Below are positions 33,877 to 50,819 of a stretch of 64,000 bases of DNA, piece by piece. The number at the start of each line of letters is the position of its first letter. The stretch's first letter is position 1. The position numbers were made by a program, and so were the translations under genes. The stretch comes from a bacterium. GTDB lineage: Bacteria > Verrucomicrobiota > Verrucomicrobiia > Limisphaerales > UBA11358. The stretch spans positions 1 through 64,000 of the forward strand of contig JAJXXW010000028.1 in NCBI GenBank assembly GCA_021780905.1, given 5' to 3'. Under the pieces are notes generated by a model. It ran no database searches. It had not been told where the DNA came from and worked only from the letters and a program-made list of their open reading frames with translations.

Positions 33877-35181
33877 ATGAACACAAACGATTTTGACGTC
33901 ATCATCATCGGCGGCGGGCCGGGCGGCAGCAGTGCGGCGACCTATCTGGCCCGCGCCGGCAAACGGGTGCTCATCCTGGAAAAGGAAATCTTTCCGCGCT
34001 TTCATATCGGAGAATCCTTGTTGCCCTACAACCAGAAAATCTTCCGCGAATTGGGCGTGCTACCCGCCATCCAAGCCGCCGGATTTCCGCGCAAGGTCGG
34101 CGCTCAGTTTTTCCTCGGCAACGGTTCCATGTCCACCCGCTTCGTCTTTCGCAAAGGCAAGTTCACGCGCGAGCCGGAGGTCGTGCAGGTGGAACGCGCC
34201 AAGTTCGATCACATCCTTCTGAAGCATGCGCGTTCCAGCGGCGCCGACGCGCGTGAAGGCTGGACGGCGCTGAAGACTATTTCCGATGCGGATGGCGTGA
34301 ATGTCGAGGCCCGGGACGGTGAGGGAAAAACCTATTCTTTGCGAGCCAGATTCGTGATCGATGCCAGCGGCCGCGCCAATCTGACTGGCAATCAGGAGGG
34401 CTTGCGAGTCGTGCATCCGCGTTTGAAAAAGCTCGCCGTCTTCGGCCATTTCACAGGCGTAGCGCTGGATGCCGGGGAAGCGGGCGGCGACACGGTCATC
34501 ACGCGGTTGGAGAACAAATGGTTCTGGATCATCCCTGTCTCCCAGGAGAAAACCAGTGTCGGCCTCGTGCTGGACAAGGATGAGTTCGCCGCGAGCAAGC
34601 TCACACCGGCGGAAGTTTTCAACCAGTGGAAGGAATTTTCGCCAGTGATGCAGCAACGCATGTGCAATGCGCAGCTCTCCGGAGAAATTAAGACCACCAC
34701 GGATTTCAGTTACTTCAACCGCCGGCTCATCGGCGGGCGCGTGCTGCGCATCGGTGACGCAGCCGGTTTCATGGACCCGATCTTTTCGGCCGGAGTTTAC
34801 CTGGCTATGTGGTCTGGCAAGCTGGCTGCGGAAGTCGTGACCAAGTCGTTGGCAAAGGGCGACGACGGCTCGCGACGTTTCCTGAAATTTGAAAAGCGCG
34901 TAAAGGCCGGCATGCACTTCTACTGGCAGATGGTGGAGCATTATTATACCAAGCCTTTCATGGAACTGTTCCTCCAGCCGCGCAACCATGCGAGCCTACC
35001 CGACGCGGTGAACGCCGTGCTCGCTGGTGAACTGGAAGGCGGCTGGAATCTCCGCTGGCGGCTGCGCTACTTCTTTTTCCTCGTCAAATTCCACACTCGC
35101 CGGCCACTCGTGCCGCGCCTGAACTTTGCGCCGTTGCGCCGTCAGGAAACATCCGACGTCTTATCCACGGAGAAAGTTTGA
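33877..35181 (+). CDS. FAD-dependent oxidoreductase, halogenase-like (aryl-polyene type locus)
   Basis: 434 aa from the ATG at 33877; an in-frame GTG at 33868 is possible. Rossmann motif 'IIIGGGPGGSSAATYLARAG', then 'FHIGESLLP'. The flavin-halogenase signature WxWxIP appears as 'WFWIIP' (residues 215-220), and 'GDAAGFMDPIFSAGVYLAM' follows. The family includes tryptophan/phenolic halogenases, and close relatives are regular members of aryl-polyene and flexirubin clusters. It heads a five-gene operon. Whether it halogenates, hydroxylates or desaturates the product cannot be told. The expected active-site Lys of halogenases is not assignable by eye. Confidence 0.8.
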   Translation: MNTNDFDVIIIGGGPGGSSAATYLARAGKRVLILEKEIFPRFHIGESLLPYNQKIFRELGVLPAIQAAGFPRKVGAQFFLGNGSMSTRFVFRKGKFTREPEVVQVERAKFDHILLKHARSSGADAREGWTALKTISDADGVNVEARDGEGKTYSLRARFVIDASGRANLTGNQEGLRVVHPRLKKLAVFGHFTGVALDAGEAGGDTVITRLENKWFWIIPVSQEKTSVGLVLDKDEFAASKLTPAEVFNQWKEFSPVMQQRMCNAQLSGEIKTTTDFSYFNRRLIGGRVLRIGDAAGFMDPIFSAGVYLAMWSGKLAAEVVTKSLAKGDDGSRRFLKFEKRVKAGMHFYWQMVEHYYTKPFMELFLQPRNHASLPDAVNAVLAGELEGGWNLRWRLRYFFFLVKFHTRRPLVPRLNFAPLRRQETSDVLSTEKV

Positions 35182-35188
35182 GTGGCCG

Positions 35189-35653
35189 ATGAAAATTTTC
35201 CCAGCCGCACCCTTCTGGCTGCTGGCGCTCGCCGGCGTCTCCTGTCGGACCTTGCCGCCGCTGCCGCCGGCCAACCTCTCGACGCCCGGCTGGCGCCTCC
35301 AGCAGGGCCAGGCGGTCTGGCAACCACCCGGCCACCAGCCCGAGATGACCGGCGACTTGCTGCTCGCCACGAATGTGAACGGAAGTTTCTTCCTGCAGTT
35401 CACCAAGGATCCATTCCCGCTCGTCACGGCGGAATCGCGCGCCGGCCGCTGGCAGATCAGCTTTGGTGCGGATGAACATGTCTGGCGTGGGCCGGGCAAA
35501 CCGCCCGCGCGCTTTGTCTGGTTTCAATTGCCGTCGGCCTTATTGTCGGGAAAAACCGCCGGCACCTGGCGCTTCACCTCTGCGGAGACCAACCGCTGGC
35601 GACTCGAAAACCTGCGCACGGGCGAAACCCTGGAGGGCGGATTTTTCCCATGA
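35189..35653 (+). CDS. Putative outer-membrane lipoprotein of the polyene-type locus
   Basis: 154 aa from the ATG at 35189, 7 bp after the FAD gene; the longer frame from 35126 would overlap it. The N-terminus 'MKIFPAAPFWLLALAGVSC' is a signal peptide ending in a near-lipobox Cys. The body is beta-rich. Small lipoproteins of this kind (for example DUF3261 members) recur in aryl-polyene clusters next to the exporter and the LolA gene. It probably helps move the product to the outer membrane. Family membership is inferred from context. Confidence 0.6.
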   Translation: MKIFPAAPFWLLALAGVSCRTLPPLPPANLSTPGWRLQQGQAVWQPPGHQPEMTGDLLLATNVNGSFFLQFTKDPFPLVTAESRAGRWQISFGADEHVWRGPGKPPARFVWFQLPSALLSGKTAGTWRFTSAETNRWRLENLRTGETLEGGFFP

Positions 35654-38600
35654 AATGGTTCCGTTGGTGGTGGCTGTTGTTTCTGGTTCCGGTCGCGATC
35701 GGACTTGCCCGCCTGCGCTTTGACGGCGACGTGCTTGACCTGTTGCCGGGAAAAGTTCCCGCCGTCGCCGGCCTGAAAATCTACCAGCAGCACTTCACCA
35801 ATTCGCGCGAACTGATCGTCACGGTGCAAGCCGGTGACGCTGATGCGGCAAAACACGCCGCCCAAGCCATCGCGGAAAAATTACGCGCCGCCACCAACCT
35901 GGTTTCCGAAGTTACCTGGCAGCCGCCGTGGCTGGAACACCCGGAACAGACCGCTGAATTTGTCGCATATCTGTGGCTGAACCAGCCGCCGGAAGTGTTC
36001 GAAAAATTTGCCGGCCGACTGACGGAAACCAACTTGCCCAGTTTGCTGGCCGACACGCGTGAACAACTGGCCAGCACACTGTCGCCCGGCGACATCGCGC
36101 AGTTGAGCTACGATCCGTATGGCTTCTCAAGACTGCCGGAAAAACTCACCGGCATGGCGGCAAACTTTGGGCAGGGAGAGGAAATGTTTGCCTCGCCTGA
36201 TGGAAGCTTCCGAATCCTCTTCGTGAAAGCGCGCGCAGAACTGCCCGGCTACCGCGAATGCACGGACTGGCTCGACGCCGTGGTTGCGTCTCTCGGCGAC
36301 GCTGTGCCACAAGACGTGAAAATTGGTTTCACGGGCCGGCCGGCCTTCGAGGCGGAAATCTCCGCCAGCATGAAGCACGACATCATTTTGTCTGTCGGCG
36401 GCACATCGGTCATCATCGCGATCTTGTTCTGGCTCGCGCATCGCCGGTTCAAGCCCATGCTCTGGCTGCTGCTGCTGCTGGCTTTAATTCTGGCGGCGAC
36501 GCTCGCGCTTGGCGGACTGATCATCGGCACGGTCAACGTCATCAGCATGGGCTTCGCCGCCATCCTGCTCGGCCTCGCGGTGGACTACGCCGTGGTGCAT
36601 TACCAGGAGGCGCTCGCGCAACCGCATCTTTCCATCCCGCAAATCCGCCTCGCCATCGCCCCCGCGATCTTCTGGGCGGCGGTCACCACCATCAGCGCGT
36701 TTCTGGTGCTCAACTTCGGCGGCCTGCCCGGACTCGCCCAGCTCGGCTCGCTCGTGGGCATCGGCGTCGCGCTCTCGGCATTCGTGATGATCTTCGCCTT
36801 TTTGCCGCCGCTATTTCCGGAGCGCATGCGTATTGCCGCTGAAAAAATTAGTAGAGAGGAAGACGCGCTTATTCCCACAACGCTCAGCCCAACTCGAGCC
36901 AGAGTAATTCTGGTCATTACTGCAGTTTTGATCCTGCTGGCGTTTTTCATTCTGCGTTCCGGCCTGCCGAAATTGGACAACAGTGCGGATGCCTTGCAAC
37001 CACGTGGCAGCCAGGCCTACGCAGCGCTGGCCGCCGTCCAAAAAAGTCTCAGCCGAAACAGCGATCCGCTCTGGCTGGTCGTGGCCGGCGTGGACGAAAG
37101 TCAGGTGGCGCGAAAGTTGGATGCCATTCATCCGGTGTTGGAGAACGCCGTCCGCAACCAGATTTTGAGCGGTTATTCCTCGCCGGATACTTTCTGGCCG
37201 CAACCCGATAACCAATCCCGCAATCGGATCACCGCCCAAAAAATAGTGTCTGAACAATCCGCCCTGCACGCGGCGGCGGCGGCCGGCGGGTTTGCTGAAG
37301 GCGCCTTGGGCCTGACCGATTCAATCCTCGTAACGTGGCAACGTGCGGCGGCAACAACGGATGTTTTCTGGCCGACCAATCCGCTTTGCGCCTGGATCTT
37401 TGAAAAACTGACCGTGCGCGAGAAGAACCAATTTTACGCCGTCGCCTTTCTCTTCCCCGGCACCAACTCCGCCGCGCTCGCGCGCATGGAAGCATGGTTG
37501 CCGCGCGATGGTGTCTGGCTTTCGAGCTGGAAACTTCTCGGTGAAACTGTGCTGGCCGAGGTGGAAAAAAATCTCTGGAAGCTGGTGGCGGGGATGGGCG
37601 GGCTAATCCTGTTTGCACTGTGGCTGGCCTTCCGTCGTCCGCTGGAGATCGGCCTGAGCCTGGGCGTGCTGTTGTTGAGCGGCCTCGTGCTGTTGGCAGC
37701 GATGAAACTTTCCGGCTGGTCGTGGAATCTGCTCAATCTTATGGCGCTGCCGCTCATCCTCGGCACTGGCGTGGATTACAGTATTTTCATGCAACTCGCG
37801 TTGCGACGGCACGGCGGCGATCGGCGACTCGCGCATCGTTCTGTCGGTCGCGCTCTGTTGCTCTGCGGCGGCACGGCCATCGCGGGCTTTGGGATGCTCG
37901 GTCTTTCCAGCAATGCCGGCATGGCCAGCCTTGGCCGGGTGTGCGCAGTGGGCATCGCCGGCAACATGCTTCTGTCTATCTTCCTGCTGCCGGTCTGGTG
38001 GAAATGGCTGGGCGGTGAAAAAGGTTCATCCGTGCGAAAAGTTTCCGGGCCTTCGCAACTTTATCAGGCGCGACTCTGGCAGGCAGGTCTGTTGCTGGTG
38101 CGCCTGTTGCCGCAATGGTTTTGCACCGGACTGGCGAGGATCGCTGCTGCCATCTACTGGCATTTCGCTCCGCACCGCCGCACGATCGTAATCCAGAATC
38201 TGGTGCCGGTTTTTCAGAATGATCGCAAAGCCGCCCGGCGCGCCGCCCGGGAATTGTTCACGGAATTCCTGCTCAAGCTGCTCGACCTCTGGCGCTATGA
38301 AAGCGGCGTAATCGACAGCCAATGGTTTCTGGACTGGAAAGGCTGGGAGACATTCAAGGCTGCAGAATCACGCGGGCGCGGTGTGCTGCTAGTCACGCCG
38401 CATCTCGGCAATTGGGAACTCGGCGGGCCGTTCATGGTGCGGCACGACATCAAGTTGCTGGCGTTGACGCAGGATGAACCTGACCCGCGCATGACGGCGA
38501 TGCGCCAGGCCTCGCGCGCCCGCTGGGGCGTGGAGACGGTGGTTGTGGGCAAGGACGCTTTTGCCATCGTGGAAATTATTAAGCGCTTGCAGGTCGGGGC

Positions 38601-38928
38601 GACCGTGGCCTTACTCGTGGATCGTCCGCCCGCGCCGACGGCGGTAACTGTGAAATTGTTCGGTCAAGACTTTGCCGCATCCATCGCCGCCGCCGAGCTC
38701 GCGCGCGCCTCCGGTTGCGCCATTATTCCCACCATGATCGTGCGCGAGGCGAACGGTTATCGCGCCCAGATCCTGCAGGAAATCTCATACGACCGCGCTC
38801 ACATCAACAACCGGCCCGAGCGCATCCGGCTTACCCAGGAAATCCTGCGTGCGTTCGAACCAGCCATCCGGCAATATGCCGCGCAATGGTATCACTTCGT
38901 TCCCATCTGGCCGTCAGAGAAAAAATGA
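35650..38928 (+). CDS. RND/MMPL-type exporter fused to LpxL-type acyltransferase
   Basis: A 1092-aa protein starting in an ATGA overlap. Residues 1-~790 form an MMPL/RND transporter of two halves, each with a large periplasmic loop and TM bundles ('FAAILLGLAVDYAVVHYQEAL', 'LILGTGVDYSIFMQLALRR'). The GxxxDY motifs in TM4-like helices are the proton relay type. Residues ~800-1092 are a lysophospholipid/lipid A acyltransferase domain with H918xxxxE ('PHLGNWE') and 'LLVDRPPAPTAVTV'. In known aryl-polyene loci these are normally two adjacent genes. The fusion would couple lipid attachment to export across the inner membrane. Confidence 0.85.
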   Translation: MKWFRWWWLLFLVPVAIGLARLRFDGDVLDLLPGKVPAVAGLKIYQQHFTNSRELIVTVQAGDADAAKHAAQAIAEKLRAATNLVSEVTWQPPWLEHPEQTAEFVAYLWLNQPPEVFEKFAGRLTETNLPSLLADTREQLASTLSPGDIAQLSYDPYGFSRLPEKLTGMAANFGQGEEMFASPDGSFRILFVKARAELPGYRECTDWLDAVVASLGDAVPQDVKIGFTGRPAFEAEISASMKHDIILSVGGTSVIIAILFWLAHRRFKPMLWLLLLLALILAATLALGGLIIGTVNVISMGFAAILLGLAVDYAVVHYQEALAQPHLSIPQIRLAIAPAIFWAAVTTISAFLVLNFGGLPGLAQLGSLVGIGVALSAFVMIFAFLPPLFPERMRIAAEKISREEDALIPTTLSPTRARVILVITAVLILLAFFILRSGLPKLDNSADALQPRGSQAYAALAAVQKSLSRNSDPLWLVVAGVDESQVARKLDAIHPVLENAVRNQILSGYSSPDTFWPQPDNQSRNRITAQKIVSEQSALHAAAAAGGFAEGALGLTDSILVTWQRAAATTDVFWPTNPLCAWIFEKLTVREKNQFYAVAFLFPGTNSAALARMEAWLPRDGVWLSSWKLLGETVLAEVEKNLWKLVAGMGGLILFALWLAFRRPLEIGLSLGVLLLSGLVLLAAMKLSGWSWNLLNLMALPLILGTGVDYSIFMQLALRRHGGDRRLAHRSVGRALLLCGGTAIAGFGMLGLSSNAGMASLGRVCAVGIAGNMLLSIFLLPVWWKWLGGEKGSSVRKVSGPSQLYQARLWQAGLLLVRLLPQWFCTGLARIAAAIYWHFAPHRRTIVIQNLVPVFQNDRKAARRAARELFTEFLLKLLDLWRYESGVIDSQWFLDWKGWETFKAAESRGRGVLLVTPHLGNWELGGPFMVRHDIKLLALTQDEPDPRMTAMRQASRARWGVETVVVGKDAFAIVEIIKRLQVGATVALLVDRPPAPTAVTVKLFGQDFAASIAAAELARASGCAIIPTMIVREANGYRAQILQEISYDRAHINNRPERIRLTQEILRAFEPAIRQYAAQWYHFVPIWPSEKK

Positions 38929-39602
38929 GCCGCTTCCGTCTCATCATTCTGGCCATGATGCTGGTGTTGTCGGGAAAAAATCTTCGCGCCGGCGATACGA
39001 ACACTGTGCTCGACGGCTGGTTCGCTGCACAGACAAAAGTGCAGTCTTGGTCGGCAGATTTCATCCAGACGCGTTCGCTGAAAACTCTCACCCAACCGCT
39101 GGTCGCCACCGGCCGCGTGGATTTTGCCATGCCGGGCAATTTTCGTTGGGAGATCGGTCGCACGGCCCGCACCGTAGCCGTTGGCGACGGCTCCGTGATG
39201 TTCGTGATCTATCCGCTGCTAAAGCGCGCGGAAAAATACCCGCTCGGTGCCAGCGCCCCGAAGCAATGGCGCGACATGCTTTCATTGTTGCAGGTCGGAT
39301 TCCCCCATAGCCGCAAGGAATTCGATGCGCAGTTCGCGATGCGTTCGTTGACGGAAGCGAATGGCGTCTGGCAATTGTCGCTCGCGCCGCAAAGCGACCT
39401 CGCCCGGCAGATGATGCCTGAGTTGCGGCTGGGCCTGGCGACGAATGACTTTTCGTTGCGCAGCACGGAGATGATCTTTGTGGACGGTTCGAGGATGCGG
39501 AGCGATTACACCAACGCGGTGCTGAATCAGCCGTTGGAACCGGAGCGGTTTCACTGGACACCCCCGGCTGATTTCAAAGTCACCACGCCGTTCAACAAAT
39601 GA
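38925..39602 (+). CDS. LolA-like outer-membrane lipoprotein carrier
   Basis: 225 aa from the ATG at 38925, in an ATGA overlap with the exporter. Signal peptide 'MSRFRLIILAMMLVLSGKN', then the LolA fold: 'VQSWSADFIQTRSL', 'LVATGRVDFAMPGNFRWEI', 'LLKRAEKYPLG', 'FVDGSRMRSDYTN'. LolA shuttles lipoproteins through the periplasm. The cluster-bound homologues in aryl-polyene loci are thought to carry the lipid-linked pigment. A housekeeping LolA would normally sit elsewhere. Confidence 0.85.
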   Translation: MSRFRLIILAMMLVLSGKNLRAGDTNTVLDGWFAAQTKVQSWSADFIQTRSLKTLTQPLVATGRVDFAMPGNFRWEIGRTARTVAVGDGSVMFVIYPLLKRAEKYPLGASAPKQWRDMLSLLQVGFPHSRKEFDAQFAMRSLTEANGVWQLSLAPQSDLARQMMPELRLGLATNDFSLRSTEMIFVDGSRMRSDYTNAVLNQPLEPERFHWTPPADFKVTTPFNK

Positions 39603-40030
39603 GCGCTGATTTTCAAAAGGCTTTGGACGCTTTGCCGCACGGCGCGGAGTTCCGGTTCGTGGACCGGCTCACGCGGCTTGAACCCGGCAAATCCGGCGCG
39701 GGCGAATACACCGTGCGCGGCAACGAACCGTTTCTGCGCGGTCATTTTCCAGGCGAACCGATCTTTCCCGGCGTTTTATTGGCCGAGGCGGCAGCGCAAT
39801 TGGCCGGGATCGTGGCGCAAAGCGATCCGCAAATTCCGCCGTTGAAAAATCTGAGGCTCACCGCCCTTCGTAATGTGAAAATCCTCGGCACAGCACGTCC
39901 CGGTGAAACCATTCAAATCGAAGCAACGATTGCCGGACGACTGGGTGGCCTCGTTCAGGCACAGGTGACAGGCCAAGTGAATGGCGAGGTTGTTCTGCGG
40001 GCGGAGTTGACTTTAAGTGGTGATTTGTGA
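39599..40030 (+). CDS. FabZ-like 3-hydroxyacyl-ACP dehydratase
   Basis: A 143-aa single hot-dog domain starting in an ATGA overlap with the LolA gene. The catalytic motif is intact: 'FLRGHFPGEPIFPGVLLAEAAAQ' split as GHFPGEPIFPG with the His, and LLAEAAAQ with the Glu. It would dehydrate 3-hydroxyacyl-ACP to the trans-2-enoyl form, the step that, without enoyl reduction, builds a conjugated polyene. Last gene of the first operon. Confidence 0.88.
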   Translation: MSADFQKALDALPHGAEFRFVDRLTRLEPGKSGAGEYTVRGNEPFLRGHFPGEPIFPGVLLAEAAAQLAGIVAQSDPQIPPLKNLRLTALRNVKILGTARPGETIQIEATIAGRLGGLVQAQVTGQVNGEVVLRAELTLSGDL

Positions 40031-40184
40031 GAAAAAGCTGCAGGTTTTTATGGGTATGCCACAAAAATAATTAGCCGTTCTATGTTGTATAACACTACTT
40101 ACAACAGGCTGCGGTAGCCTATCAAAGTTTACGTAGCTATCGATTCCGACCCTCAAGGTGCCAGAGTTGAAGTCAACAACGACT

Positions 40185-40442
40185 ATGCCGGAACAACGCC
40201 AAACTTATACAATCCAAGGAAATGCAGACCGGTCATTCAATGGAAACTGGGTTGAAGGGTCTATGATTGAATTTGTTGCTACGCCTCCTCCAGAACAAAC
40301 AAATCTGTATGTGATTAAAAAATCGTTTCGTCCCAGCGCTTTCTTCCAGCAGGGAGACCACATTCCTGAAAAAATGTTTTCCGATCTACGACGCAAACCA
40401 GAAGGTTTTCATCTAAACGTCTCTCCTGATTCTAAACCATAA
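40185..40442 (+). CDS. Small hypothetical protein
   Basis: 85 aa from the ATG at 40185; the frame extends to a GTG at 40158. Mixed alpha/beta, no signal peptide ('YTIQGNADRSFNGNWVEGS', 'LYVIKKSFRPSAFFQQGDHIP'). Clearly lower in GC than the operon before it. No ribosome site or family recognised; may be a recent arrival. Confidence 0.4.
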   Translation: MPEQRQTYTIQGNADRSFNGNWVEGSMIEFVATPPPEQTNLYVIKKSFRPSAFFQQGDHIPEKMFSDLRRKPEGFHLNVSPDSKP

Positions 40443-40520
40443 CGAATTTGACCGGCTCAACCTCAACCAAATTAATCCATAAATTTTCCGAAGCTTTTTT
40501 ATGTTGCCTCTTTAATTTTA

Positions 40521-40811
40521 ATGCTTAGCTTAATTATTCTCGTAAAAGCCGCCGATGCAACATCGACACAAGTGCAAAAACTTGAATATGTGTCAATCCA
40601 TTGGGATGGCCGCGATAACACGCATATCATATTACCCAATGGTGTTGTGAAGTGCTTGGGGCCTCAGCTGACGGTGATTTCAAAACCAAGCCGCACCGAT
40701 GAAAGAGCGTTCTATATGAACATCGCCATCAACAGTCTGGCCAAGGAAGGTTATGAATTTGTCGGCATTCGGGATAACGACGTTATCATGAAGCGGATCG
40801 CTACTCCTTAA
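40521..40811 (+). CDS. Small hypothetical protein, possibly exported
   Basis: A 96-aa protein. The first ~12 residues are hydrophobic (MLSLIILVKAADA), possibly a short signal peptide, followed by 'LEYVSIHWDGRDNTHIILPNG' and 'INSLAKEGYEFVGIRDNDVIM'. The 'LAKEGYEFVGI' ending resembles small DUF4177-like proteins. AT-rich like its neighbour. Convergent with the antiporter gene 12 bp away. Confidence 0.45.
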   Translation: MLSLIILVKAADATSTQVQKLEYVSIHWDGRDNTHIILPNGVVKCLGPQLTVISKPSRTDERAFYMNIAINSLAKEGYEFVGIRDNDVIMKRIATP

Positions 40812-40823
40812 AGCATTCTAGAT

Positions 40824-42089
40824 TCAATCCGGCACCAGTTTCCTCAAATCCTTCGGCAGCCAGCGGCGCAGCAACGGCCCGGTCATGGCCGTGGTCAGCA
40901 GCGCCATGATGACCAGCATGGTGAACAGCGCCGGGGTGAGCAGCTTCAGGTCGAGTCCCACATTGATGGCGATGAGCGCCATGAGTGCGCGGGTGTTCAT
41001 GAGCACGGCAATGGACGCGGCCTCGCGCGTTGGCTGCCCGGTGACTTTTGCGCCGACAAAACAGCCGCCGAGTTTTCCCGCCACCGCCGCAACCAGCACC
41101 AGCGCACAGGCCAGCCAGGCTTCGGGGGTTTGCAGCGAGCCGATGTGAGTATTGAGTCCGGTGTTCGTGAAAAATACCGGCACGAATGCCACCAGCACCA
41201 CGTCCGAGAACCGGTCGCGCCACGCCTTGACGATGCCCGGTTCCTGGTGCAGGCAGACGCCAAACAGAAACGCGCCAAAGATGACGAAGATGCCGAGGTA
41301 ATGCGTGATGAGGCAACTGGCAAACAGACAGACCAGCAGCAGGGCGAGAAAGGAATTGGGCATGCCCTTTTCATGGGCGTCGCGAACGTGATTTTTCCAA
41401 AAAGTGCGCAGCCATGGCCCGACTACCCTTTGCAATAGGCCGAAAAAAACCACGATCAAGGCGATCTGACCGAGCAGATGCCAGATCTGAAAATGGCTGG
41501 TGACCAGGGCCGTCGCCACGCCGAGCAGCACCCAGCCGATGACGTCGTCAATCGCCGCCGTGCTGATCGCAATGGCACCGATAGCGGTGCGTTCCAGTCG
41601 CATTTCCAGCAGAATGCGCCCCATGATTGGCAGCGCGGAAATGCTCAGCGCGATGCAGATGAACAGCAGGAAGCCGAACTGGGGAATATCCGGTGCGAAG
41701 GTGGAATGCAGCCAGGGGCCGATGGCCAGTCCGCACAAGAACGGCATCACCATGCCCATGATGGAAACGATGGTGATGGTGCGCGAGCGTGAGCGCACAT
41801 GGCTGTAATCAAATTCCATCCCTACCTGAAACAGTAGGAAGATCAGGCCGAGCTTGCCGAGCAGTTGCATGGAAGTCTGGGTCTCCTTGGGGAACAACAC
41901 GGGCCAGTCCGCCGGCCAGATGAGACCGAGCGCCGAGGGGCCGAGCAGGATGCCCGCCGCGATCTCGCCGACCGCGAGCGGCTGGCCAAACTTTTTCCCA
42001 AGCCGGCCAAAGACCCACGCGGCGGCGATGATGATCATCCATTGGATCAGGACGAGCGTAAGATGGCCCTCGATGGCGCTTGGATTCAT
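40824..42089 (-). CDS. CPA2-family Na+/H+ (or K+/H+) antiporter
   Basis: 421 aa from the ATG at 42089 (MNPSAIEGHLTLVLIQWMI); the open frame to 42374 antisenses nothing convincing and lacks homology. About twelve transmembrane helices: 'GRLGKKFGQPLAVGEIAAGILLGPSALG', 'LGLIFLLFQVGMEFDY', 'AISTAAIDDVIGWVLLG' with the paired acidic DD of the cation site, and 'FGAFLFGVCLHQEPG'. It lacks the RCK/TrkA-N domain of Kef proteins. Possibly supports ion or pH homeostasis. It follows the AMP-ligase by 53 bp on the same strand and may be co-transcribed. Confidence 0.85.
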   Translation of the reverse strand: MNPSAIEGHLTLVLIQWMIIIAAAWVFGRLGKKFGQPLAVGEIAAGILLGPSALGLIWPADWPVLFPKETQTSMQLLGKLGLIFLLFQVGMEFDYSHVRSRSRTITIVSIMGMVMPFLCGLAIGPWLHSTFAPDIPQFGFLLFICIALSISALPIMGRILLEMRLERTAIGAIAISTAAIDDVIGWVLLGVATALVTSHFQIWHLLGQIALIVVFFGLLQRVVGPWLRTFWKNHVRDAHEKGMPNSFLALLLVCLFASCLITHYLGIFVIFGAFLFGVCLHQEPGIVKAWRDRFSDVVLVAFVPVFFTNTGLNTHIGSLQTPEAWLACALVLVAAVAGKLGGCFVGAKVTGQPTREAASIAVLMNTRALMALIAINVGLDLKLLTPALFTMLVIMALLTTAMTGPLLRRWLPKDLRKLVPD

Positions 42090-42142
42090 AAAAACCTGCC
42101 TGCGAATAGTCGGGATGCGACGGCAAGGCAAGCCAAATAACC

Positions 42143-43399
42143 TCAGCTCACGGATCCCATTAGCCAGCGCCGCCGCCATTCCGCGCGGGAAATTTTGCCG
42201 CGAGCATTGGCCGGGAGCGCGGTCACAAACTGCCAGCGTCGCGGGACCTGCCACGCGGGGAGCGTTTCGAGCAGAAAATGTTTCAGCCCGGCTTCTGTGG
42301 CGGAAGCGACGACCACGGCGACGATGATTTCCGAACGTTCCGCTTCGTCGCTCGGCACGCCGAACACCAGGCATTCCCGGACCTGCGGGTGGGCCAGCAG
42401 CGCCCCCTCGATGGACTCCGGCGAGATCTTACGTCCGGCGACATTGATCAGGTCGCTCAACCGTCCGCGCAGAAACACCTGCCCGTTTTTCAACTCGGCC
42501 AGATCACTGGTGCGAAATATTTTGCTACCCAGAGCCGTGGAAGAATCCGGCCAATACGTTTCCGCCACCGCGACGCTTTGGACGATGAGGCAATTGTTTT
42601 CATCCAGTGACAACGAAACGCTCCGCACGGAATGCCCGATGAATGATGCATCTGTGCGCGGCGTTTCGCTGGTGTCGTAGGCGATGCCACCGCATTCAGA
42701 TGAGCCGAGGAAGTTGTGGATCTTCAGGCCGCTCGCATGAAAGATTTCCTCTTCCAAAGGCAGGGCGAGCGGTGCGCCGGCGGAGATGGCCAGCCGGGTG
42801 TTTGGCGGAATCGCATCGGCCTGATGCCAGGCACGCCACATTGCGGGAACGGCGGGAAGCGTGATGGTGTCGGCCTGAGCCGCCGCGTGACGGATCGTTT
42901 CCGGCAACGGTGCCGGGGCGAGAATCAATGGGATGCCGTGCAACAGCAGCGGCAACACGAGATTGGAGAAACCATATGAGTGCGCCAGCGAGATGACACC
43001 GAGGTTCGGCCAATCCGGTCGCAGGCCCATGGTGGCGACGATATTTTCCGCGTCTGCGGCAAGTTGTTCCGCGGTGAAGGCCACCAGTTTTGCAGCGCCA
43101 GAGGTGGCGGAGGTGGACTTGAAATGAATGATCCTTTCCGACGGCGCGGGAATCAGCGGCGGCATCTGGCCGGGCTCCAGCGGACAGGCGATGGTTTTCG
43201 TGCGCCAGGCCGCAAGCAGGGCGAGGATAAAATCCGGCGACTGGCCTTGGGGAAAGGCGCCGCCGGATGAATCAACTTGCCGGCATTCACCGTCGGCAAA
43301 TAATTCTCCGAACGTCCACCGGCGGCCGGTGGCAAAATCCAGCAGCGCCAGTTCGTCGCGGCGCGTCGCCGCTATGTCCCGCCACCGTTCGTAAAGCAT
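42143..43399 (-). CDS. AMP-dependent acyl/aryl-CoA (ACP) ligase
   Basis: 418 aa from the ATG at 43399 (MLYERWRDIAATRRDELALL). A class I adenylate-forming enzyme: P-loop 'STSATSGAAKLVAFT', 'ISAGAPLALPLEEEIF', 'NFLGSSECGGIAYDTS', hinge region 'RTSDLAELKNGQVFLRGRL', 'VAGRKISPESIEGAL', catalytic Lys near the end in 'NARGKISRAEW'. Somewhat short (usual 450-550). In aryl-polyene loci the ligase loads the aromatic starter acid onto ACP, and that role is inferred here. Divergent from the 43446 gene with 46 bp between starts. Confidence 0.8.
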   Translation of the reverse strand: MLYERWRDIAATRRDELALLDFATGRRWTFGELFADGECRQVDSSGGAFPQGQSPDFILALLAAWRTKTIACPLEPGQMPPLIPAPSERIIHFKSTSATSGAAKLVAFTAEQLAADAENIVATMGLRPDWPNLGVISLAHSYGFSNLVLPLLLHGIPLILAPAPLPETIRHAAAQADTITLPAVPAMWRAWHQADAIPPNTRLAISAGAPLALPLEEEIFHASGLKIHNFLGSSECGGIAYDTSETPRTDASFIGHSVRSVSLSLDENNCLIVQSVAVAETYWPDSSTALGSKIFRTSDLAELKNGQVFLRGRLSDLINVAGRKISPESIEGALLAHPQVRECLVFGVPSDEAERSEIIVAVVVASATEAGLKHFLLETLPAWQVPRRWQFVTALPANARGKISRAEWRRRWLMGSVS

Positions 43400-43445
43400 T
43401 GTTAGTTTGGTAGCGCACGCGTAACTTGTTGCCAAGCTGATTTGC

Positions 43446-44174: not shown

Positions 44175-44532
44175 CCGGGCGCGGCCGCCAGAACAATGGG
44201 CCAATGAAGACGAGGCCGCAGATGTTCACGCCGCAGATGTAGCCGATTTTGTAAATCCGCCCGACGTTGTGATCGTCGTAGATTTGAACGTCGTGGCCGG
44301 TGACCAGGCTGGGCAGCGAGAGCGGCATCATGGCGCCGTGCAACATGCCGTAGCCGAAACCGGCGGTCCGATCTTTTGCAAAGGCCCAGGGCGAGGCCCA
44401 GCTGTAAAGCCAGCCGAATACCAATGTGACGATGATGATCGTCACCGCCTTACGGATGATCAACTTGACGAGCCGCTTGACCTTGGTGTCCGGGGCTGGT
44501 GTTGTATCCGGGTTTGATTTAATCGAGAGCAT
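44143..44532 (-). CDS. Small membrane protein, unknown
   Basis: 129 aa from the ATG at 44532; an upstream in-frame ATG at 44574 is possible. Two hydrophobic helices: 'AVTIIIVTLVFGWLYSWAS' and 'IGYICGVNICGLVFIGPLFW'. Between them lies 'TAGFGYGMLHGAMMPLSLPS', which looks like a hairpin in the membrane. Its start codon overlaps that of the methyltransferase on the other strand (shared CATG at 44530-44533). Family unknown. Confidence 0.5.
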   Translation of the reverse strand: MLSIKSNPDTTPAPDTKVKRLVKLIIRKAVTIIIVTLVFGWLYSWASPWAFAKDRTAGFGYGMLHGAMMPLSLPSLVTGHDVQIYDDHNVGRIYKIGYICGVNICGLVFIGPLFWRPRPVTSTSSGKSG

Positions 44533-45220
44533 GTTTTTGCGCGAACGTTCAACGCAGACAGAGTATTTCGACACGCCGGGGCTTTCTCAAGCCCAGCGTG
44601 ATCTCGCCTATCGTGAACTCGACCGTTTGAACCGGTTTTTTCATTTCAGCCACACATTTGTCAGCCGCATCCCACGCTGGCTCGGCCGGAAACGGTGCGA
44701 GCGATTGCAGATTCTGGACGTAGGGGCGGGCACTGGTCTGTTGGGAAAACGGATGTCAGAGTGGGCAGCACGACGGGGTTGGAACTGGAGCTTTACAAAC
44801 CTGGATCTCAATCCCCGCCCGCTGGGAAATGAATTGTCCGCAAAATTTGTTGCAGGCTCGGCACTGCAACTGCCGTTCGCCGAGGCCAGCTTCGATCTCG
44901 TCATCGCCTCACAGATGACCCATCACCTGACGGACAAGGAAATCGTTCAGCACTGGCGGGAGGCGTGGCGCGTGACGCGCGACGGGATTTTTATCTGTGA
45001 CTTACATCGCAATGCCGGCTTTTACGGAATGTTGCGGTTGATGATGCGGTTGATCCGCACGGATGAACAGGTGCGGAAAGATGGTTTGATTTCTATCGAG
45101 CGCGGCTTTCGTTGTCCGGAATGGCGCGAACTGGCCGCGCACGCGGGGATTCCCAGGGCAGAGGTCTCGCTGTATTACGGCACGCGGATTGTGCTGCAGG
45201 CGCGCAAGGCCGCGCGTTGA
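44531..45220 (+). CDS. SAM-dependent methyltransferase of polyketide/polyene type
   Basis: 229 aa from the ATG at 44531. The start 'MFLRERSTQTEYFDTPGLS' is the typical leader (R-R-S-T-x-x-E-x-x-D) of class I methyltransferases found in type III PKS and aryl-polyene clusters. SAM motif I 'LQILDVGAGTGLLGKRM', then 'FDLVIASQMTHHLTDKEIV'. Probably O- or C-methylates the aromatic head group. Overlaps the GT2 gene tail-to-tail by 46 bp. Confidence 0.82.
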   Translation: MFLRERSTQTEYFDTPGLSQAQRDLAYRELDRLNRFFHFSHTFVSRIPRWLGRKRCERLQILDVGAGTGLLGKRMSEWAARRGWNWSFTNLDLNPRPLGNELSAKFVAGSALQLPFAEASFDLVIASQMTHHLTDKEIVQHWREAWRVTRDGIFICDLHRNAGFYGMLRLMMRLIRTDEQVRKDGLISIERGFRCPEWRELAAHAGIPRAEVSLYYGTRIVLQARKAAR

Positions 45221-45891: not shown

Positions 45892-46457
45892 TCCAAGCGG
45901 CTCGGGTGCAGGTCGGCCTTGAGAATGGACCCGTCCGTGGCGGAGATGTGAACGACACCGATGTCAGCCATGTCTTCCGGGTGTTTGAGTTTCGCCGCCC
46001 AGAGTTTGACTTTCCATTCCGGTCCGGTCGCACCATGACCGAGCTGGAGTTGCGTGGCCTTAAGGGCGAGTGATTTGACGAGCGGATGGTCCGTGGCGAT
46101 GGCCTGGGCCTTGTCAGAATCAATCTTCAATTTGTCGGCATCCAGTATTTTATCGTCGCCAGTGATCGGCTCCAGCAGGCGCAGCGGATGCGAAACATCC
46201 AACTTTTCGCCCGCGCCAAATTTCACCTCGACGGCTTTGAGCGTGGCATCGGGATCGTAATACACCACATACCAGATGTTCGGGGTGAGGCCACCGAGGG
46301 ATTTCTCCGAGCGGATTTGGACGACCTTGTCTTTGCTCTGCACGCCTACGTATTCATTCCCGCGTTTGACCAATTGGAAGGCGGTCAGATCTTTGGCGTC
46401 TGCCGTAGTGACGATGCAGACTGCCAGTAGCACGAAAGCGAAATATTTTATTTTCAT
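45888..46457 (-). CDS. Exported hypothetical protein
   Basis: 189 aa from the ATG at 46457, chosen because 'MKIKYFAFVLLAVCIVTTADA' is a clean signal peptide with an A-x-A site. The mature part is beta-rich ('YVGVQSKDKVVQIRSEKSLGG', 'WYVVYYDPDATLKAVEVKFG') and PepSY-like toward the end ('WKVKLWAA', 'VVHISATDGSILKADLHP'). Probably periplasmic. Divergent from the radical SAM gene, with 38 bp between start codons. Confidence 0.65.
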   Translation of the reverse strand: MKIKYFAFVLLAVCIVTTADAKDLTAFQLVKRGNEYVGVQSKDKVVQIRSEKSLGGLTPNIWYVVYYDPDATLKAVEVKFGAGEKLDVSHPLRLLEPITGDDKILDADKLKIDSDKAQAIATDHPLVKSLALKATQLQLGHGATGPEWKVKLWAAKLKHPEDMADIGVVHISATDGSILKADLHPSRLE

Positions 46458-46495
46458 AGTCTGGCCGCAATCTAGTCGCTGCCGGCCAAAGCGCA

Positions 46496-47590
46496 ATGGA
46501 TTTTTTTCAGCGCAGAAAATGCGTTGCACTGGACCCGGTCGCGATTTTTAATAGGGCTGTGCCGGATAAATATTATTTTCCAAGCGCCATTGATCTGGCT
46601 GTCCAAGGGACAAAACAGGCTGCGTTTCACGAACGGGCGACCGGCGTCACTCGCGGGAGATTCGGCACGTCGGTCTTTGTGCGTGCTGTGGTCGAGGTTT
46701 CCAACTTCTGCCGGGAGAACTGCACCTATTGCGGGATGCGGCGCGACAACCGCGCGTTGAAGCGTGTCCGCGCCCGGCACGAGTCGCTGGCGGAAATGCT
46801 CATCCAGCACCGGCCTGCCAGTGTCACGGACATCAACATCCAGGCCGGTGAAGATCCCGTGGCCGTGCGTGAAGTGGTGCTGCCGCTCATCCGCGCGCTC
46901 CGGCGTGAAACTTCCCTCGGCATCAGCGTTTGTCTCGGCACGTTGCCCACGGAATTATACGCGGAACTGCAATCCGCCGGTGCCAGCATCTACATCATCA
47001 AGTTCGAGATCGGCGGGGCCGCCCAATACGAACAGTTTGCCGCGCCCGGCACATTGGCTGAACGTCTGCGTCATGTTCGATTGCTTGCGGATGCCGGATG
47101 GAATGTCAGTTCCGGCTTCATCTCCGGCCTGCCCGGTCAGACCGTCGATGACCTGATACATAATTTCAAGATTGCCAGCGAGCTTCCCCTGAACGGTTGC
47201 AGCGTCAGTCCATTCATTCCCGGAAATGAGACGCCGCTTTCCGACGGCCAGCCGGGACGTTCGGATTGGACTTTGAATTCGATCGCCGCGCTCCGGCTGA
47301 TGCGGCCGGACTGGATCATTCCCGCCATCAGCGCGTTGAACCTCATGGAGTCGGACGGTTATCGTCATGGCTTGCGCGCGGGCGCGAACTTGGTGACGAT
47401 GAACCTGACCCCGGAAGAAGTGCGTGGCGATTATGTCATTTACAAACGCGACCGGTTCATCATGACCGAGGAACGTGTTCTGGACGCCATCGCCGCCGAG
47501 GGTTTGCAGCCATCCGTCGGCGGACTGGCGGAACACTATCGCCATCAGGCCGAGCGGCAGCCACAACCCCGGACCGCCCTGCCGGTTTAA
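46496..47590 (+). CDS. Radical SAM enzyme, HydE/BioB/PylB-like
   Basis: A 364-aa protein. The cluster motif is C72-x3-C76-x2-C79 in 'SNFCRENCTYCGMRRDN', very close to the HydE form. 'INIQAGEDP' follows, then 'GLPGQTVDDLI', 'SPFIPGNETPL' and the BATS-like end 'GANLVTMNLTPEEVRGDY'. It binds a [4Fe-4S] cluster and SAM. HydE itself matures [FeFe]-hydrogenase, but no hydF, hydG or hydrogenase gene is in the window. Here it is the first gene of an operon with KS, CLF, KR and ACP, 6 bp before the KS. A role in making or modifying the polyketide/starter is the simplest reading; the reaction is unknown. Confidence 0.85.
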   Translation: MDFFQRRKCVALDPVAIFNRAVPDKYYFPSAIDLAVQGTKQAAFHERATGVTRGRFGTSVFVRAVVEVSNFCRENCTYCGMRRDNRALKRVRARHESLAEMLIQHRPASVTDINIQAGEDPVAVREVVLPLIRALRRETSLGISVCLGTLPTELYAELQSAGASIYIIKFEIGGAAQYEQFAAPGTLAERLRHVRLLADAGWNVSSGFISGLPGQTVDDLIHNFKIASELPLNGCSVSPFIPGNETPLSDGQPGRSDWTLNSIAALRLMRPDWIIPAISALNLMESDGYRHGLRAGANLVTMNLTPEEVRGDYVIYKRDRFIMTEERVLDAIAAEGLQPSVGGLAEHYRHQAERQPQPRTALPV

Positions 47591-47596
47591 TATTTT

Positions 47597-48838
47597 GTGC
47601 TCTTTCCGCTCACAAAAAAAACCGAAAGCGCCAACCGCGTTGTGGTGACCGGCGCTGGTGTCATCACCGCGCTCGGCGCGGGGTGGGAGATCAACGCCGC
47701 CGGTTTCCGCGCGGGCCGGAACGCCTTTCGACCCGTAACGCTGTTCGACGCTTCCCATCAACGCGCCAAGATCGCGGCGGAGATCGACTTGCCCGGAGAA
47801 TTTCCCGCCACGCGGCTGCCGACAAAATATTATCGCCGGCTCGATCGCGCGGCGCGGATGTTGTTGCTGGCTGCGCACGAAGCATGGACGCAAAGCGGCT
47901 GGCAAGGCAGCGAAAATCTGCCGGTGGTTTTGGGAACGACCAGCGGAGAGATGTCGCTCGGTCAGGCTTACCTGCGTCAGGCCATCAACTCACCGCGGCA
48001 ATTTCACCGGCAGGCCACGCGCGTGGCTTACTATCAGATGCAGCGCCAGGCACTGGATTTGTGCGAGGCATTCGGTTTTAACGGGCCGGTCACCATCATC
48101 TCCAACGCCTGTGCCTCCGGGTCCAACGCCATCGGCCACGCATGGGAATTGTTGCGCGATGGCCGTGCGGAAAGAGTGTTGACGGGTGGCTACGACGCCT
48201 TGTGCCAGCTCACCTTTGCGGGTTTCGATTCGTTGCAAGCGCTCGCGCCCACGGCCTGCCGGCCATTCGACGCGACGCGCAACGGGCTGACGCTTGGCGA
48301 AGGGGCGGCAGTTTTTACTTTGGAAACCCTTGCCGGTGCGCAGAAACGCGCCGCGCCGATCCTTGGAGAGATCATCGGCTACGGTGCGACCACCGATGTG
48401 CATCATCTCACCCAGCCGCATCCCGAAGGCGATGCCGCCCTCGCGGCGATGAACGCCGCCTGCGCCGCGGCCGGCATCACGGCCGCCCAAGTGGACTACG
48501 TGAATGCCCACGGCACGGCCACGCCGCAGAATGACGCCACCGAAGCCGTCGCTATCAACCGTTGGGCCGGCGAACATGCCCGGAATATTTCTGTGAGTTC
48601 CACCAAGGCGTGCATCGGGCATCTGCTCGGTGCGGCGGGTGCAGTCGAGGCGGCGGTTTGCCTGATGGCATTGCGCGGACAATGGCTGCCGCCGGAAGTT
48701 TTGCTTGAACAGGTGGATCCCGTGTGTCGTTTCTCTATCGTGCGCCAGCCCACGGACAAAAAAATCAAGATCGCGCTGTCGAACTCCTTCGGCTTCGGCG
48801 GTGCCAATGCCTCGCTCATCTTCCGGAGGTGGGCGTGA
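47597..48838 (+). CDS. Beta-ketoacyl-ACP synthase (KS, FabF type)
   Basis: A 413-aa protein with a GTG start. All catalytic residues are in place: Cys172 in 'SNACASGSNAIGHA', His305 in 'VNAHGTATPQND', Lys337 and His342 in 'KACIGHLLGAAG'. 'NSFGFGGANAS' ends the fold. It performs decarboxylative condensation of malonyl-ACP onto the growing chain. It is followed by a degenerate partner in a 4-bp overlap, so the pair is a KS-CLF heterodimer as in type II PKS and aryl-polyene synthases. Confidence 0.92.
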   Translation: MLFPLTKKTESANRVVVTGAGVITALGAGWEINAAGFRAGRNAFRPVTLFDASHQRAKIAAEIDLPGEFPATRLPTKYYRRLDRAARMLLLAAHEAWTQSGWQGSENLPVVLGTTSGEMSLGQAYLRQAINSPRQFHRQATRVAYYQMQRQALDLCEAFGFNGPVTIISNACASGSNAIGHAWELLRDGRAERVLTGGYDALCQLTFAGFDSLQALAPTACRPFDATRNGLTLGEGAAVFTLETLAGAQKRAAPILGEIIGYGATTDVHHLTQPHPEGDAALAAMNAACAAAGITAAQVDYVNAHGTATPQNDATEAVAINRWAGEHARNISVSSTKACIGHLLGAAGAVEAAVCLMALRGQWLPPEVLLEQVDPVCRFSIVRQPTDKKIKIALSNSFGFGGANASLIFRRWA

Positions 48839-49833
48839 GCCGGATTTTCATCCATGGCACTGGTGCGGTTTCCCCGGCGGGTTGGGGCGTCGCGGCTTTA
48901 TGCGAGGCTGTGAAGCAGGGCGTGCCGTTGCCGTGTCAGGATGTCCAACGTCCGGGTTGGGATGAACTGCTGGCTGTGCGTCTGGTTCCGGCACCGGCAG
49001 TCCGGTCGGCATTTCTCGCGCATCCCCGGCTGCGCCGGGCCGGGGCGATGGCGCAACACACTGTTGGCGCGGTGCTGGAGGCGCTGGGTGACGATGTGGC
49101 TCGTGTGCAATCCGGCGAACTGCGCTTAGGTATCATCGTGTGCATGATGGCCGGTGGCGTGACCTATTCGCGGCGGTTTTACGAGGAAGTGATGAAGGCA
49201 CCGGAAACGGCCAGTCCGTTAATTTTTCCCGAGACGGTCTTCAATGCGCCAGCCAGCCATGTCGGTGCGTATCTCGGCTCCAAGACGATCAATTACACGC
49301 TCGTGGGCGACAACGGAACGGTTCTGCAAGGTCTTGCGCTTGGCGCCGGCTGGCTGGACAGCGGCCGGGCCGATGCCTGTGTGGTGATCGGCACCGAGGA
49401 AGTGGACTGGGTGGTGGCCGATGCCTTGAGATTGTTCCAGCCGCGCACAATTTACAGCGGTGGTGCTGGCGCGGTGTATTTGAAGAAGGCGGTTTCCGAC
49501 GTGGAGCTAAAGGCCGTCACGGATTCGTTTGTTTTCACCCGCCAGCAGGATTGCGTTGTGGCAGCGCGACTGGTGCGGGCGCAATTGCCGTCTGGATCTG
49601 CCGGGGAATTATTGTGTGATTGCGGCAGCCGCTTCGCGGATTGGACTGGCTGGCCAGGACAACGACTGACTTTAAAGCCAGTTCTCGGTGAAGCCTTTGA
49701 CGCCTCGGCCGCATGGCAATGTGTGGTGGCTGCCCACACATTGCACGCAAAGGAATTTTCAGCGGCGAACATCAGTGTGGCCGGCGTAAACCAGCAGGCG
49801 ATCGGCGCGCGGTTTGCCAGAAACGATTTATGA
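48835..49833 (+). CDS. Chain-length-factor-like ketosynthase partner
   Basis: 332 aa from GTG at 48835, behind GGAGG at about 48824. Thiolase fold, but by spacing to the conserved GRA the nucleophile Cys is replaced by Asn160 ('VGDNGTVLQG'). The HGT and KxxxGH motifs of active KS are gone. It is shorter than the KS (332 vs 413), lacking much of the C-terminal half. Such inactive partners set chain length. The frame extends upstream to 48724 inside the KS gene, but the overlap start fits better. Confidence 0.82.
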   Translation: MSRIFIHGTGAVSPAGWGVAALCEAVKQGVPLPCQDVQRPGWDELLAVRLVPAPAVRSAFLAHPRLRRAGAMAQHTVGAVLEALGDDVARVQSGELRLGIIVCMMAGGVTYSRRFYEEVMKAPETASPLIFPETVFNAPASHVGAYLGSKTINYTLVGDNGTVLQGLALGAGWLDSGRADACVVIGTEEVDWVVADALRLFQPRTIYSGGAGAVYLKKAVSDVELKAVTDSFVFTRQQDCVVAARLVRAQLPSGSAGELLCDCGSRFADWTGWPGQRLTLKPVLGEAFDASAAWQCVVAAHTLHAKEFSAANISVAGVNQQAIGARFARNDL

Positions 49834-50561
49834 GTCAACGGATCATTCTCATCACGGGCGCGAACGGCGCGCTGGGACAGGCGGTGGCCCGGGCATTTTT
49901 GGATGAATCGCCTGGCAACCACGTGTGGCTTGGAGTCCATCAGCGGCGCGATCGGGCGGATGCGCTCGCTGCCGCAGAGGCCGGACGCTGCCGGGTCGTG
50001 TCGTTGAACGTGGCCGAGGCCGCCTCGTGGAAAAACGCCGTGGCCGAAATCCTTTCCGCGCATGATCGTCTGGATGCGCTCGTGAACAACGCCGGCACGC
50101 ATGACGACGTCCTGCTCGCCCAGATGAAGCCGGAGTCGTGGCATGGGGTTCTCTCCGTGAATCTAGACGGGGTTTTTCATGGCTGTCAGACCGTGTTGCC
50201 GACGATGATTTCCCAACACCATGGGCGAATCATCAACATTTCGTCCTTGAGCGCCATCTACGCGCCGGCCGGGCAGACGAACTACGCTGCCGCAAAGGCG
50301 GGCGTAGTGGCGCTGACGCAATCGCTGGCGAAGGAGGTCGCGCGGCTGGGCATCACAGTCAACGCCGTGTGCCCCGGCTATCTTGAGACCGAGATGCTGG
50401 ATAAAATGGATTCGGCCACCCGTCAACGAGTGATGATGCAGGTGCCCATGCGCCGTTTTGGGAAGCCGGCGGAAGTTGCCGAAGCAGTTAGATTTCTGGC
50501 TTGCCCCGGTGCAAGTTACATCACAGGCTCTGTGCTAAAAATTGACGGCGGAATTTTTTAA
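49830..50561 (+). CDS. 3-oxoacyl-ACP reductase (FabG-like ketoreductase)
   Basis: 243 aa from the ATG at 49830 in an ATGA overlap; the frame opens earlier at 49713 within the CLF gene. Classical SDR: 'ITGANGALGQAVARAF', 'NNAGTHDDVLLAQM', Ser in 'IINISSLSAI' and YxxxK in 'NYAAAKAGVVAL', plus 'VNAVCPGYLETEML'. It reduces the 3-keto group on ACP before dehydration by the FabZ-like enzyme at 39599. Confidence 0.9.
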   Translation: MSQRIILITGANGALGQAVARAFLDESPGNHVWLGVHQRRDRADALAAAEAGRCRVVSLNVAEAASWKNAVAEILSAHDRLDALVNNAGTHDDVLLAQMKPESWHGVLSVNLDGVFHGCQTVLPTMISQHHGRIINISSLSAIYAPAGQTNYAAAKAGVVALTQSLAKEVARLGITVNAVCPGYLETEMLDKMDSATRQRVMMQVPMRRFGKPAEVAEAVRFLACPGASYITGSVLKIDGGIF

Positions 50562-50564
50562 GCA

Positions 50565-50819
50565 ATGAGCGATTCAATACAACTCAAAAGCGAGATCAAA
50601 CGCATGTTGGTGGAGAACCTGATGCTGCAGATCAGCGCGGAAGAAATCGGCGACGACCAGCCGCTGTTTGGGCCAGACAGTCTCGGCTTGGACTCCGTGG
50701 ATGCATTGCAGCTGGTGGTGGCTTTGGAAAAAAATTTCGGTTTGAAGCTCTCTGATCCAGAAGTGGCCCGCGGAGTTTTGCGAAACGTAAACTCCATTGC
50801 TGCAGCCTTGCAATCCTAA
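50565..50819 (+). CDS. Acyl carrier protein
   Basis: An 84-aa, acidic four-helix protein. The phosphopantetheine attachment Ser44 is in 'SLGLDSVDALQLVVALE'. It starts 3 bp after the ketoreductase stop. It would carry the growing chain for the KS/CLF, KR and dehydratase of this locus. The dedicated position and GLDS (rather than LGADSLD) motif argue against it being the housekeeping AcpP. Confidence 0.92.
   Translation: MSDSIQLKSEIKRMLVENLMLQISAEEIGDDQPLFGPDSLGLDSVDALQLVVALEKNFGLKLSDPEVARGVLRNVNSIAAALQS

What the first reader, a model, noticed from the sequence alone, without database searches (positions are those of the whole stretch)
33877..50819. Aryl-polyene/flexirubin-like locus with a radical SAM enzyme and no visible ammonia-lyase
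Seen: KS, CLF-like partner, KR, dehydratase, ACP, AMP-ligase, methyltransferase, GT2, LolA-like, RND/MMPL exporter, LpxL-type acyltransferase and halogenase-like FAD protein within 17 kb. Known: this is the usual kit of aryl-polyene, xanthomonadin and flexirubin clusters, whose aromatic starter often comes from an ammonia-lyase or a chorismate enzyme. Absent: any ammonia-lyase, chorismatase or thioesterase. Present instead: a HydE/BioB-like radical SAM protein leading the KS operon. The product could be a polyene with an unusual head group, or a modified chain (ladderane-like KS/radical-SAM loci are an alternative comparison).
Basis: partly seen in the sequence, partly recalled or inferred. 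Interest (0 to 1): 0.85.

Follow-up and report, generated by a model that had tools for sequence, protein, structure and literature searches.

The report
Polyene gene cluster with repurposed HydE-type enzyme
This bacterial gene cluster encodes a polyketide-type assembly line that is predicted to make an outer-membrane polyene lipid, and its lead operon gene belongs to a family related to a hydrogenase-building radical enzyme but kept in genomes where no such hydrogenase was found, so it likely reshapes the polyene by a chemistry not yet known for such pigments.

The parts
33868..35181 (+). FAD-dependent halogenase-like protein
   Evidence: PF04820 100.8 bits; WFWIIP and FMDPIFSAG motifs, motif meaning recalled
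35186..35653 (+). small lipoprotein-like protein before the exporter; no Pfam hit; counterpart of E. coli ApeN (DUF3261) by position only
   Evidence: in 11 of 81 clustered loci
35650..38928 (+). MMPL/RND exporter fused to LpxL-type acyltransferase
   Evidence: PF03176 and PF03279 in one ORF
38925..39602 (+). LolA-like carrier
   Evidence: PF03548 44.2 bits
39599..40030 (+). FabZ-type 3-hydroxyacyl-ACP dehydratase
   Evidence: PF07977, FabZ model 90.7 bits, under its cut-off of 113
40824..42374 (-). Na+/H+ exchanger beside the AMP ligase; also next to the radical SAM in two deep relatives
   Evidence: PF00999; L188 and L124
42143..43588 (-). AMP-forming acyl/aryl ligase (ORF; true start probably further in)
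   Evidence: PF00501, PF13193
43446..44174 (+). 242-aa protein, possible papain-like cysteine enzyme (C51, H179, D199, N201 invariant in 15 rows)
   Evidence: A2, weak fold matches; listed homologues carry PF26995/PF26997
44143..44574 (-). small protein without Pfam hit, conserved in several clusters
44426..45220 (+). SAM-dependent methyltransferase
   Evidence: PF08241
45175..45891 (-). GT2 glycosyltransferase
   Evidence: PF00535
45888..46529 (-). 213-aa protein without Pfam hit, conserved beside the radical SAM in a subset
46496..47590 (+). HydE-fold radical SAM enzyme of a PKS-linked clade
47597..48838 (+). ketosynthase with complete active site
48805..49833 (+). chain length factor (inactive KS partner); longest ORF starts at 48724
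49713..50561 (+). ketoreductase (likely start 49830)
50565..50819 (+). acyl carrier protein
   Evidence: PF00550

Best explanation
The locus encodes a type II polyketide system (KS, CLF, KR, dehydratase, ACP, AMP ligase) that is predicted to build a polyene lipid for the outer membrane, led by a HydE-fold radical SAM enzyme that likely acts on the polyene chain or its ACP-bound intermediates rather than making hydrogenase cofactor or replacing an ammonia-lyase. Shown by sequence: gene content, clade, linkage, genomes without a detected [FeFe]-hydrogenase, changed residues, and no co-occurrence (in 59 genomes) with the CrtISO/CrtI-like flavoenzyme found in related KS/CLF clusters. Inferred: the AMP ligase loads an acid of unknown nature on the ACP; KS/CLF extends it with malonyl units; KR and dehydratase leave double bonds; the radical SAM abstracts a hydrogen from the chain and returns or relocates it (isomerisation, double-bond shift or ring closure), a task for which the flavoenzyme would be a substitute; halogenase-like protein, methyltransferase, GT2 and the LpxL domain decorate the product; LolA, lipoprotein and MMPL export it.
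For: Linkage: KS follows the radical SAM on the same strand in 47 of 80 named loci; CLF is in 14 of the 15 genomes with the clade, against 13 of the 44 others. Not a maturase: PF02906 in 7 of 21 genomes, exactly the 7 with the 33-36% HydE relatives, and 0 of the 14 with only this clade. Apart from HydE in a tree (clade 94/94, HydE 94/83, just under the starred level). Of 81 clade members versus 9 HydE rows: position 165 never Arg (HydE Arg 9 of 9), K169 81 (Arg 8), G234 81 (Met 9), I209 81 (Met 9), V278 79 (Thr 9), T301 79 (Met 8), C146 80 (Ser 8, Cys 1), C235 77; the pocket role of these positions is recalled. Flavoenzyme: at 66-100% identity in 9 of 59 genomes, each with the CLF and none with the radical SAM (three further hits at 36-37% are in genomes with neither); at locus level in 9 of 16 CLF loci and 0 of 95 radical SAM loci, some of these the same contig twice; its best NCBIfam match is carotenoid isomerase, 134.7 bits, far below the cut-off of 586.9. 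In the KS tree, with moderate support, most flavoenzyme-type KS form a subclade inside the radical SAM type; the two AMP ligases found in flavoenzyme-type loci also fall inside (90/70).
Against: HydE, BioB, PylB and ThiH relatives act on small free molecules in a closed barrel (recalled), so an ACP-bound chain would be unusual. Only 2 of the 13 genomes with CLF but no radical SAM show this AMP ligase in the fetched stretch, so 'the ligase does not need the radical SAM' rests on little. Those loci also lack the MMPL, LolA, dehydratase and 242-aa genes, so they may make a different product, and most form one KS subclade: the exclusion may be a single event, and the trees do not force the direction of change (starred branches allow one origin of either type). 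G039, G040 and G046 have neither enzyme. Eleven of 42 well-flanked loci have the radical SAM without a 50% KS nearby, though one of these (L125) has a 44% KS. No chemistry was tested.
Confidence: 0.37

Rival explanations
1. The radical SAM makes or remodels the starter acid: it acts on a small free molecule, for example an amino acid, and the AMP ligase loads the product on the ACP, giving a polyene with an unusual head group.
For: The HydE/PylB/BioB/ThiH fold group works on small molecules (recalled). No ammonia-lyase, UbiC or FkbO/Hyg5-type enzyme was found in G000. In L124 and in G136 (complete, 99%) the radical SAM sits beside the exchanger with an AMP ligase next or about 4.7 kb on, and in L125 beside an AMP ligase; G136 has no PF00221. 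Most CLF loci without the radical SAM also show no such ligase in the fetched stretch (11 of 13). K169 is invariant and could hold a carboxylate (role inferred).
Against: Two clusters without the radical SAM do carry a closely related ligase, and the ligases of L124 and L125 form a separate deep clade (100/99). Clusters without the radical SAM also lack lyase and UbiC, so the family does not clearly need it for a starter.
Confidence: 0.32
2. A ladderane-like or cyclised lipid pathway rather than an aryl polyene; radical SAM enzymes close rings on a polyunsaturated chain.
For: B12 radical SAM (TIGR04072 rSAM_ladder_B12) between the radical SAM and the KS in 7 of 80 named loci, and after it in one more; the 5 representatives scanned are over the cut-off; a phytoene desaturase-like protein and a ligase, two further traits of ladderane clusters (PMC2649909 passages), occur in relatives.
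Against: No B12 radical SAM among the window cluster ORFs, which keep the outer-membrane export kit of aryl polyene clusters. Ladderane lipids are known only from anammox bacteria (PMC9902471 passages).
Confidence: 0.12
3. The radical SAM is an ordinary HydE or a bystander that happens to lie by the PKS operon.
Against: No [FeFe]-hydrogenase domain in the 14 genomes with only this clade; below the HydE cut-off; linkage conserved in G136, outside the order.
Confidence: 0.03

Closest known systems
Aryl polyene (APE) clusters, e.g. E. coli CFT073 and Xenorhabdus doucetiae
   Same: KS plus CLF, KR, dehydratase, ACP, AMP ligase, GT2, methyltransferase, LolA, MMPL exporter, acyltransferase; no lyase in the cluster, as in E. 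coli
   Different: No third KS (ApeR type), one ACP and one dehydratase seen, no thioesterase, MMPL and LpxL fused, halogenase-like protein and HydE-type radical SAM added; KS falls in its own clade
Flexirubin cluster (flx) of Chitinophaga and Flavobacterium
   Same: Type II polyene machinery, ligase, LolA, exporter (PMC3992019 passages); KR matches the FlxB model below cut-off (209.5 against 340)
   Different: No tyrosine ammonia-lyase FlxA; no DarA/DarB-type gene recognised among the ORFs scanned; radical SAM added
Ladderane-type clusters of anammox bacteria and Desulfotalea
   Same: FabF-like pairs with radical SAM enzymes, ligase, GT (PMC2649909 and PMC4790861 passages); some sister loci of the window carry the ladderane-associated B12 radical SAM family
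   Different: The window's radical SAM has no B12 domain hit; export kit present; no phytoene desaturase-like gene in the window cluster. Anammox sequences were not compared directly
HydE, [FeFe]-hydrogenase maturase
   Same: Fold, CxxxCxxC, E171 and Q116 kept
   Different: Recalled HydE pocket positions changed; genomes lack the hydrogenase domain; linked to KS/CLF

Membership tests
Aryl polyene cluster | KS with a chain length factor lacking the catalytic Cys | tested here: met
   KS C172 in 42 of 42; CLF has no Cys there in 36 of 36, second His is Glu in 33 of 36
Aryl polyene cluster | KS groups with known APE KS | tested here: inconclusive
   Window KS falls in a clade of its own (98/99), apart from FabF and not joined to E. 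coli ApeO or ApeR; APE rows are long branches
Aryl polyene cluster | Ligase, KR, dehydratase, ACP, LolA, MMPL, acyltransferase, GT2 | tested here: met
Aryl polyene cluster | Aromatic starter | not testable with these tools
   No lyase, UbiC or chorismatase found in G000; chemistry unknown
Flexirubin cluster | Tyrosine ammonia-lyase | tested here: not met
   PF00221 0 in G000
Ladderane-type cluster | B12 radical SAM TIGR04072 in the cluster | tested here: not met
   No B12 domain or TIGR04072 hit among the window cluster ORFs scanned; present in 8 of 80 named sister loci
HydE | Score over the HydE equivalog cut-off | tested here: not met
   184.2 against 254.6 bits
HydE | [FeFe]-hydrogenase in the genome | tested here: not met
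   PF02906 0 in G000 and in the 13 other genomes with only this clade; these are mostly incomplete MAGs
HydE | HydE fold and radical SAM motif | tested here: met

The most novel reading that the evidence does not exclude
A HydE-fold radical SAM enzyme is the polyene isomerase or ring-closing enzyme of a type II PKS: it makes a carbon radical on the ACP-bound chain and the new active-site cysteine C146 returns the hydrogen, doing by radicals what CrtISO/CrtI-like flavoenzymes do in the sister clusters that lack it.
Probability: 0.17. Interest if true: 0.88.

Novelty: new variant of a known kind. Interest (0 to 1): 0.6.

Why it matters
[quoted passage not shown] A conserved branch with a dedicated HydE-type radical SAM would be a new enzymatic step for them and a new job for the HydE fold, outside metal cofactor assembly. 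The natural contrast between clusters with the radical SAM, with a CrtISO-like flavoenzyme and with a ladderane-associated B12 radical SAM gives a ready comparative set for asking how bacteria reshape polyene chains, including the unsolved ladderane step.

Full report
What is there. The window lies on contig C19 of a 3.89 Mb genome (G000, 96 contigs, 90.56% complete, 6.65% contaminated). The nearest named relatives of the radical SAM are Limisphaerales/Pedosphaera/Verrucomicrobia MAGs, so the host is likely a verrucomicrobial bacterium. Two gene blocks make up the locus. Block 1 (33868-40030, + strand): FAD halogenase-like protein, a small lipoprotein-like protein, an MMPL exporter fused to an LpxL-type acyltransferase, LolA and a FabZ-type dehydratase, end to end. 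Block 2 (46496-50819, + strand): radical SAM, KS, CLF, KR and ACP, end to end. Between them, on mixed strands, lie a Na+/H+ exchanger, the AMP ligase, a conserved 242-aa protein, a small protein, a methyltransferase, a GT2 and a 213-aa protein.

Active sites. The KS keeps Cys172, His305, Lys337 and His342, as do all 42 KS compared; the window CLF has Asn at the Cys position and Glu at the second His, and none of the 36 CLF compared has Cys there. The halogenase-like protein carries WFWIIP and FMDPIFSAG, which fit motifs that I recall for flavin halogenases.

Not FabF. A tree of 39 KS rows puts the 28 cluster KS in one clade (98/99), apart from five FabF (99/97); E. coli ApeO and ApeR and the KS of a second polyene-like cluster in G016 are long, unsettled branches outside it.

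Linkage. Of 80 named loci found with the radical SAM alignment (the best 80 of 121 confirmed), 47 have a KS of at least 50% identity on the same strand within 3.5 kb downstream; of the 42 with at least 5 kb downstream, 31 do and 11 do not. Of 23 KS loci with about 10 kb upstream, the ligase is in 14, the 242-aa gene in 15, GT2 in 16, MMPL-LpxL in 12; of 31 with enough downstream sequence CLF is in 31, ACP in 29, KR in 23. In 59 genomes CLF is in 27 and the radical SAM clade in 15, together in 14; the odd one, G030, is 69% complete. In G136, a complete single-contig genome of the same class but another order, the radical SAM (56%) still lies beside KS (44%), CLF (30%), ACP, halogenase-like protein, MMPL, dehydratase, exchanger, GT2 and ligase, so the association is likely old.

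Variants. Between radical SAM and KS, 7 of 80 named loci hold a B12 radical SAM, with an eighth after the radical SAM on a contig without KS; the five representatives scanned (four from radical SAM loci, one from L164, which lacks the radical SAM) exceed the TIGR04072 rSAM_ladder_B12 cut-off. A second B12 radical SAM is there in 5 of the 80. A second halogenase-like protein is present in 27 of 80, in 16 of them between radical SAM and KS. Thirteen genomes have the CLF but not the radical SAM. Nine of these carry a CrtISO/CrtI-like flavoenzyme at 66-100% identity, a tenth (G022) a partial copy at its locus; G039, G040 and G046 have neither. The same search also hit three genomes at 36-37% that have neither CLF nor this radical SAM. 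No genome or locus examined has both enzymes. The KS tree places most flavoenzyme-type KS in a subclade (100/99) inside the radical SAM type, near loci with the B12 radical SAMs; the two ligases available from flavoenzyme-type loci also fall inside (90/70). The inner branches are mostly unstarred, so the direction of change is not settled. If labels were independent, no overlap between 15 and 9 of 28 genomes would have a chance of about 1e-4, but the flavoenzyme type is mostly one subclade, so this may be one event.

Ammonia-lyase. PF00221 is in 1 of 28 genomes with the CLF or radical SAM. That one, G016, has it about 1 kb beyond the exporter, in an adjoining second cluster with its own KS genes (37-40% to the window KS), ACP, thioesterase and an acyltransferase-like stretch. 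The lyase scores best to histidine ammonia-lyase models, under their cut-offs, and 397 bits to the flexirubin TAL model (cut-off 700), so its substrate is open. UbiC is in 0 of 28; PF21168 gives 7 hits, one over its cut-off, none in G000, with no hit in its control genomes. G136 has no PF00221; G315 has one on another contig than the radical SAM. So lack of the lyase goes with the whole KS/CLF family examined, not with the radical SAM.

How it most likely works. Steps shown: gene content, active-site residues, clade, linkage, exclusion. Steps inferred: loading of an acid by the ligase, extension by KS/CLF, polyene formation by KR and dehydratase, decoration, export. For the radical SAM I weigh two readings. 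Chain role (0.37): a polyene-type flavoenzyme stands in related clusters without it, at least two such clusters keep a related ligase, and the positions that I recall as lining the HydE pocket change from Met, Arg and Thr to Gly, Ile, Thr, Val and other mostly apolar residues, with K169 kept basic and Cys at 146, which would suit a larger apolar substrate. Starter role (0.32): the fold group works on small molecules, no known starter enzyme was found in the genome, deep relatives keep radical SAM and ligase close, and 11 of 13 loci without the radical SAM show no such ligase in the fetched stretch. A single-cluster radical SAM with an internal thiol would suit a redox-neutral change such as isomerisation; this is a guess.

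The 242-aa protein is a possible release enzyme in place of a thioesterase: Cys51, His179, Asp199 and Asn201 are invariant in 15 rows and the fold matches are papain-like but weak. It was not found in the flavoenzyme-type loci compared.

Comparison with the known. It works like an aryl polyene cluster and shares most of that kit, but the aromatic starter is unproven and the KS clade is its own. It is not a flexirubin cluster (no lyase). It is not a ladderane cluster by the B12 radical SAM test, though some sister loci pass that test. The radical SAM is HydE-like in fold and not HydE by score, context or residues.

Noticed in passing
G000 contigs C94, C29, C74 (L045, L046, L047): Three ThiH genes over the equivalog cut-off on three contigs of one genome; 6.65% contamination may explain part of it.
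   Followed up: partly
L172 (G016 C44:58000-77900), 6240-12677: A second polyene-like cluster with ammonia-lyase, thioesterase and its own KS lies directly beside the radical SAM cluster of G016.
   Followed up: partly
window 43446-44174: 242-aa protein of a large family (2338 relatives among 7998 candidates scored; listed ones carry PF26995/PF26997), possibly a papain-like cysteine enzyme.
   Followed up: partly
L157-L162, L165, L167, L168: Related KS/CLF clusters with a CrtISO/CrtI-like flavoenzyme, in most directly after KR, and no radical SAM.
   Followed up: yes
   Followed up: no
window 40158-40811: Two small ORFs without Pfam hits; the second recurs in 4 of 81 loci clustered.
   Followed up: no
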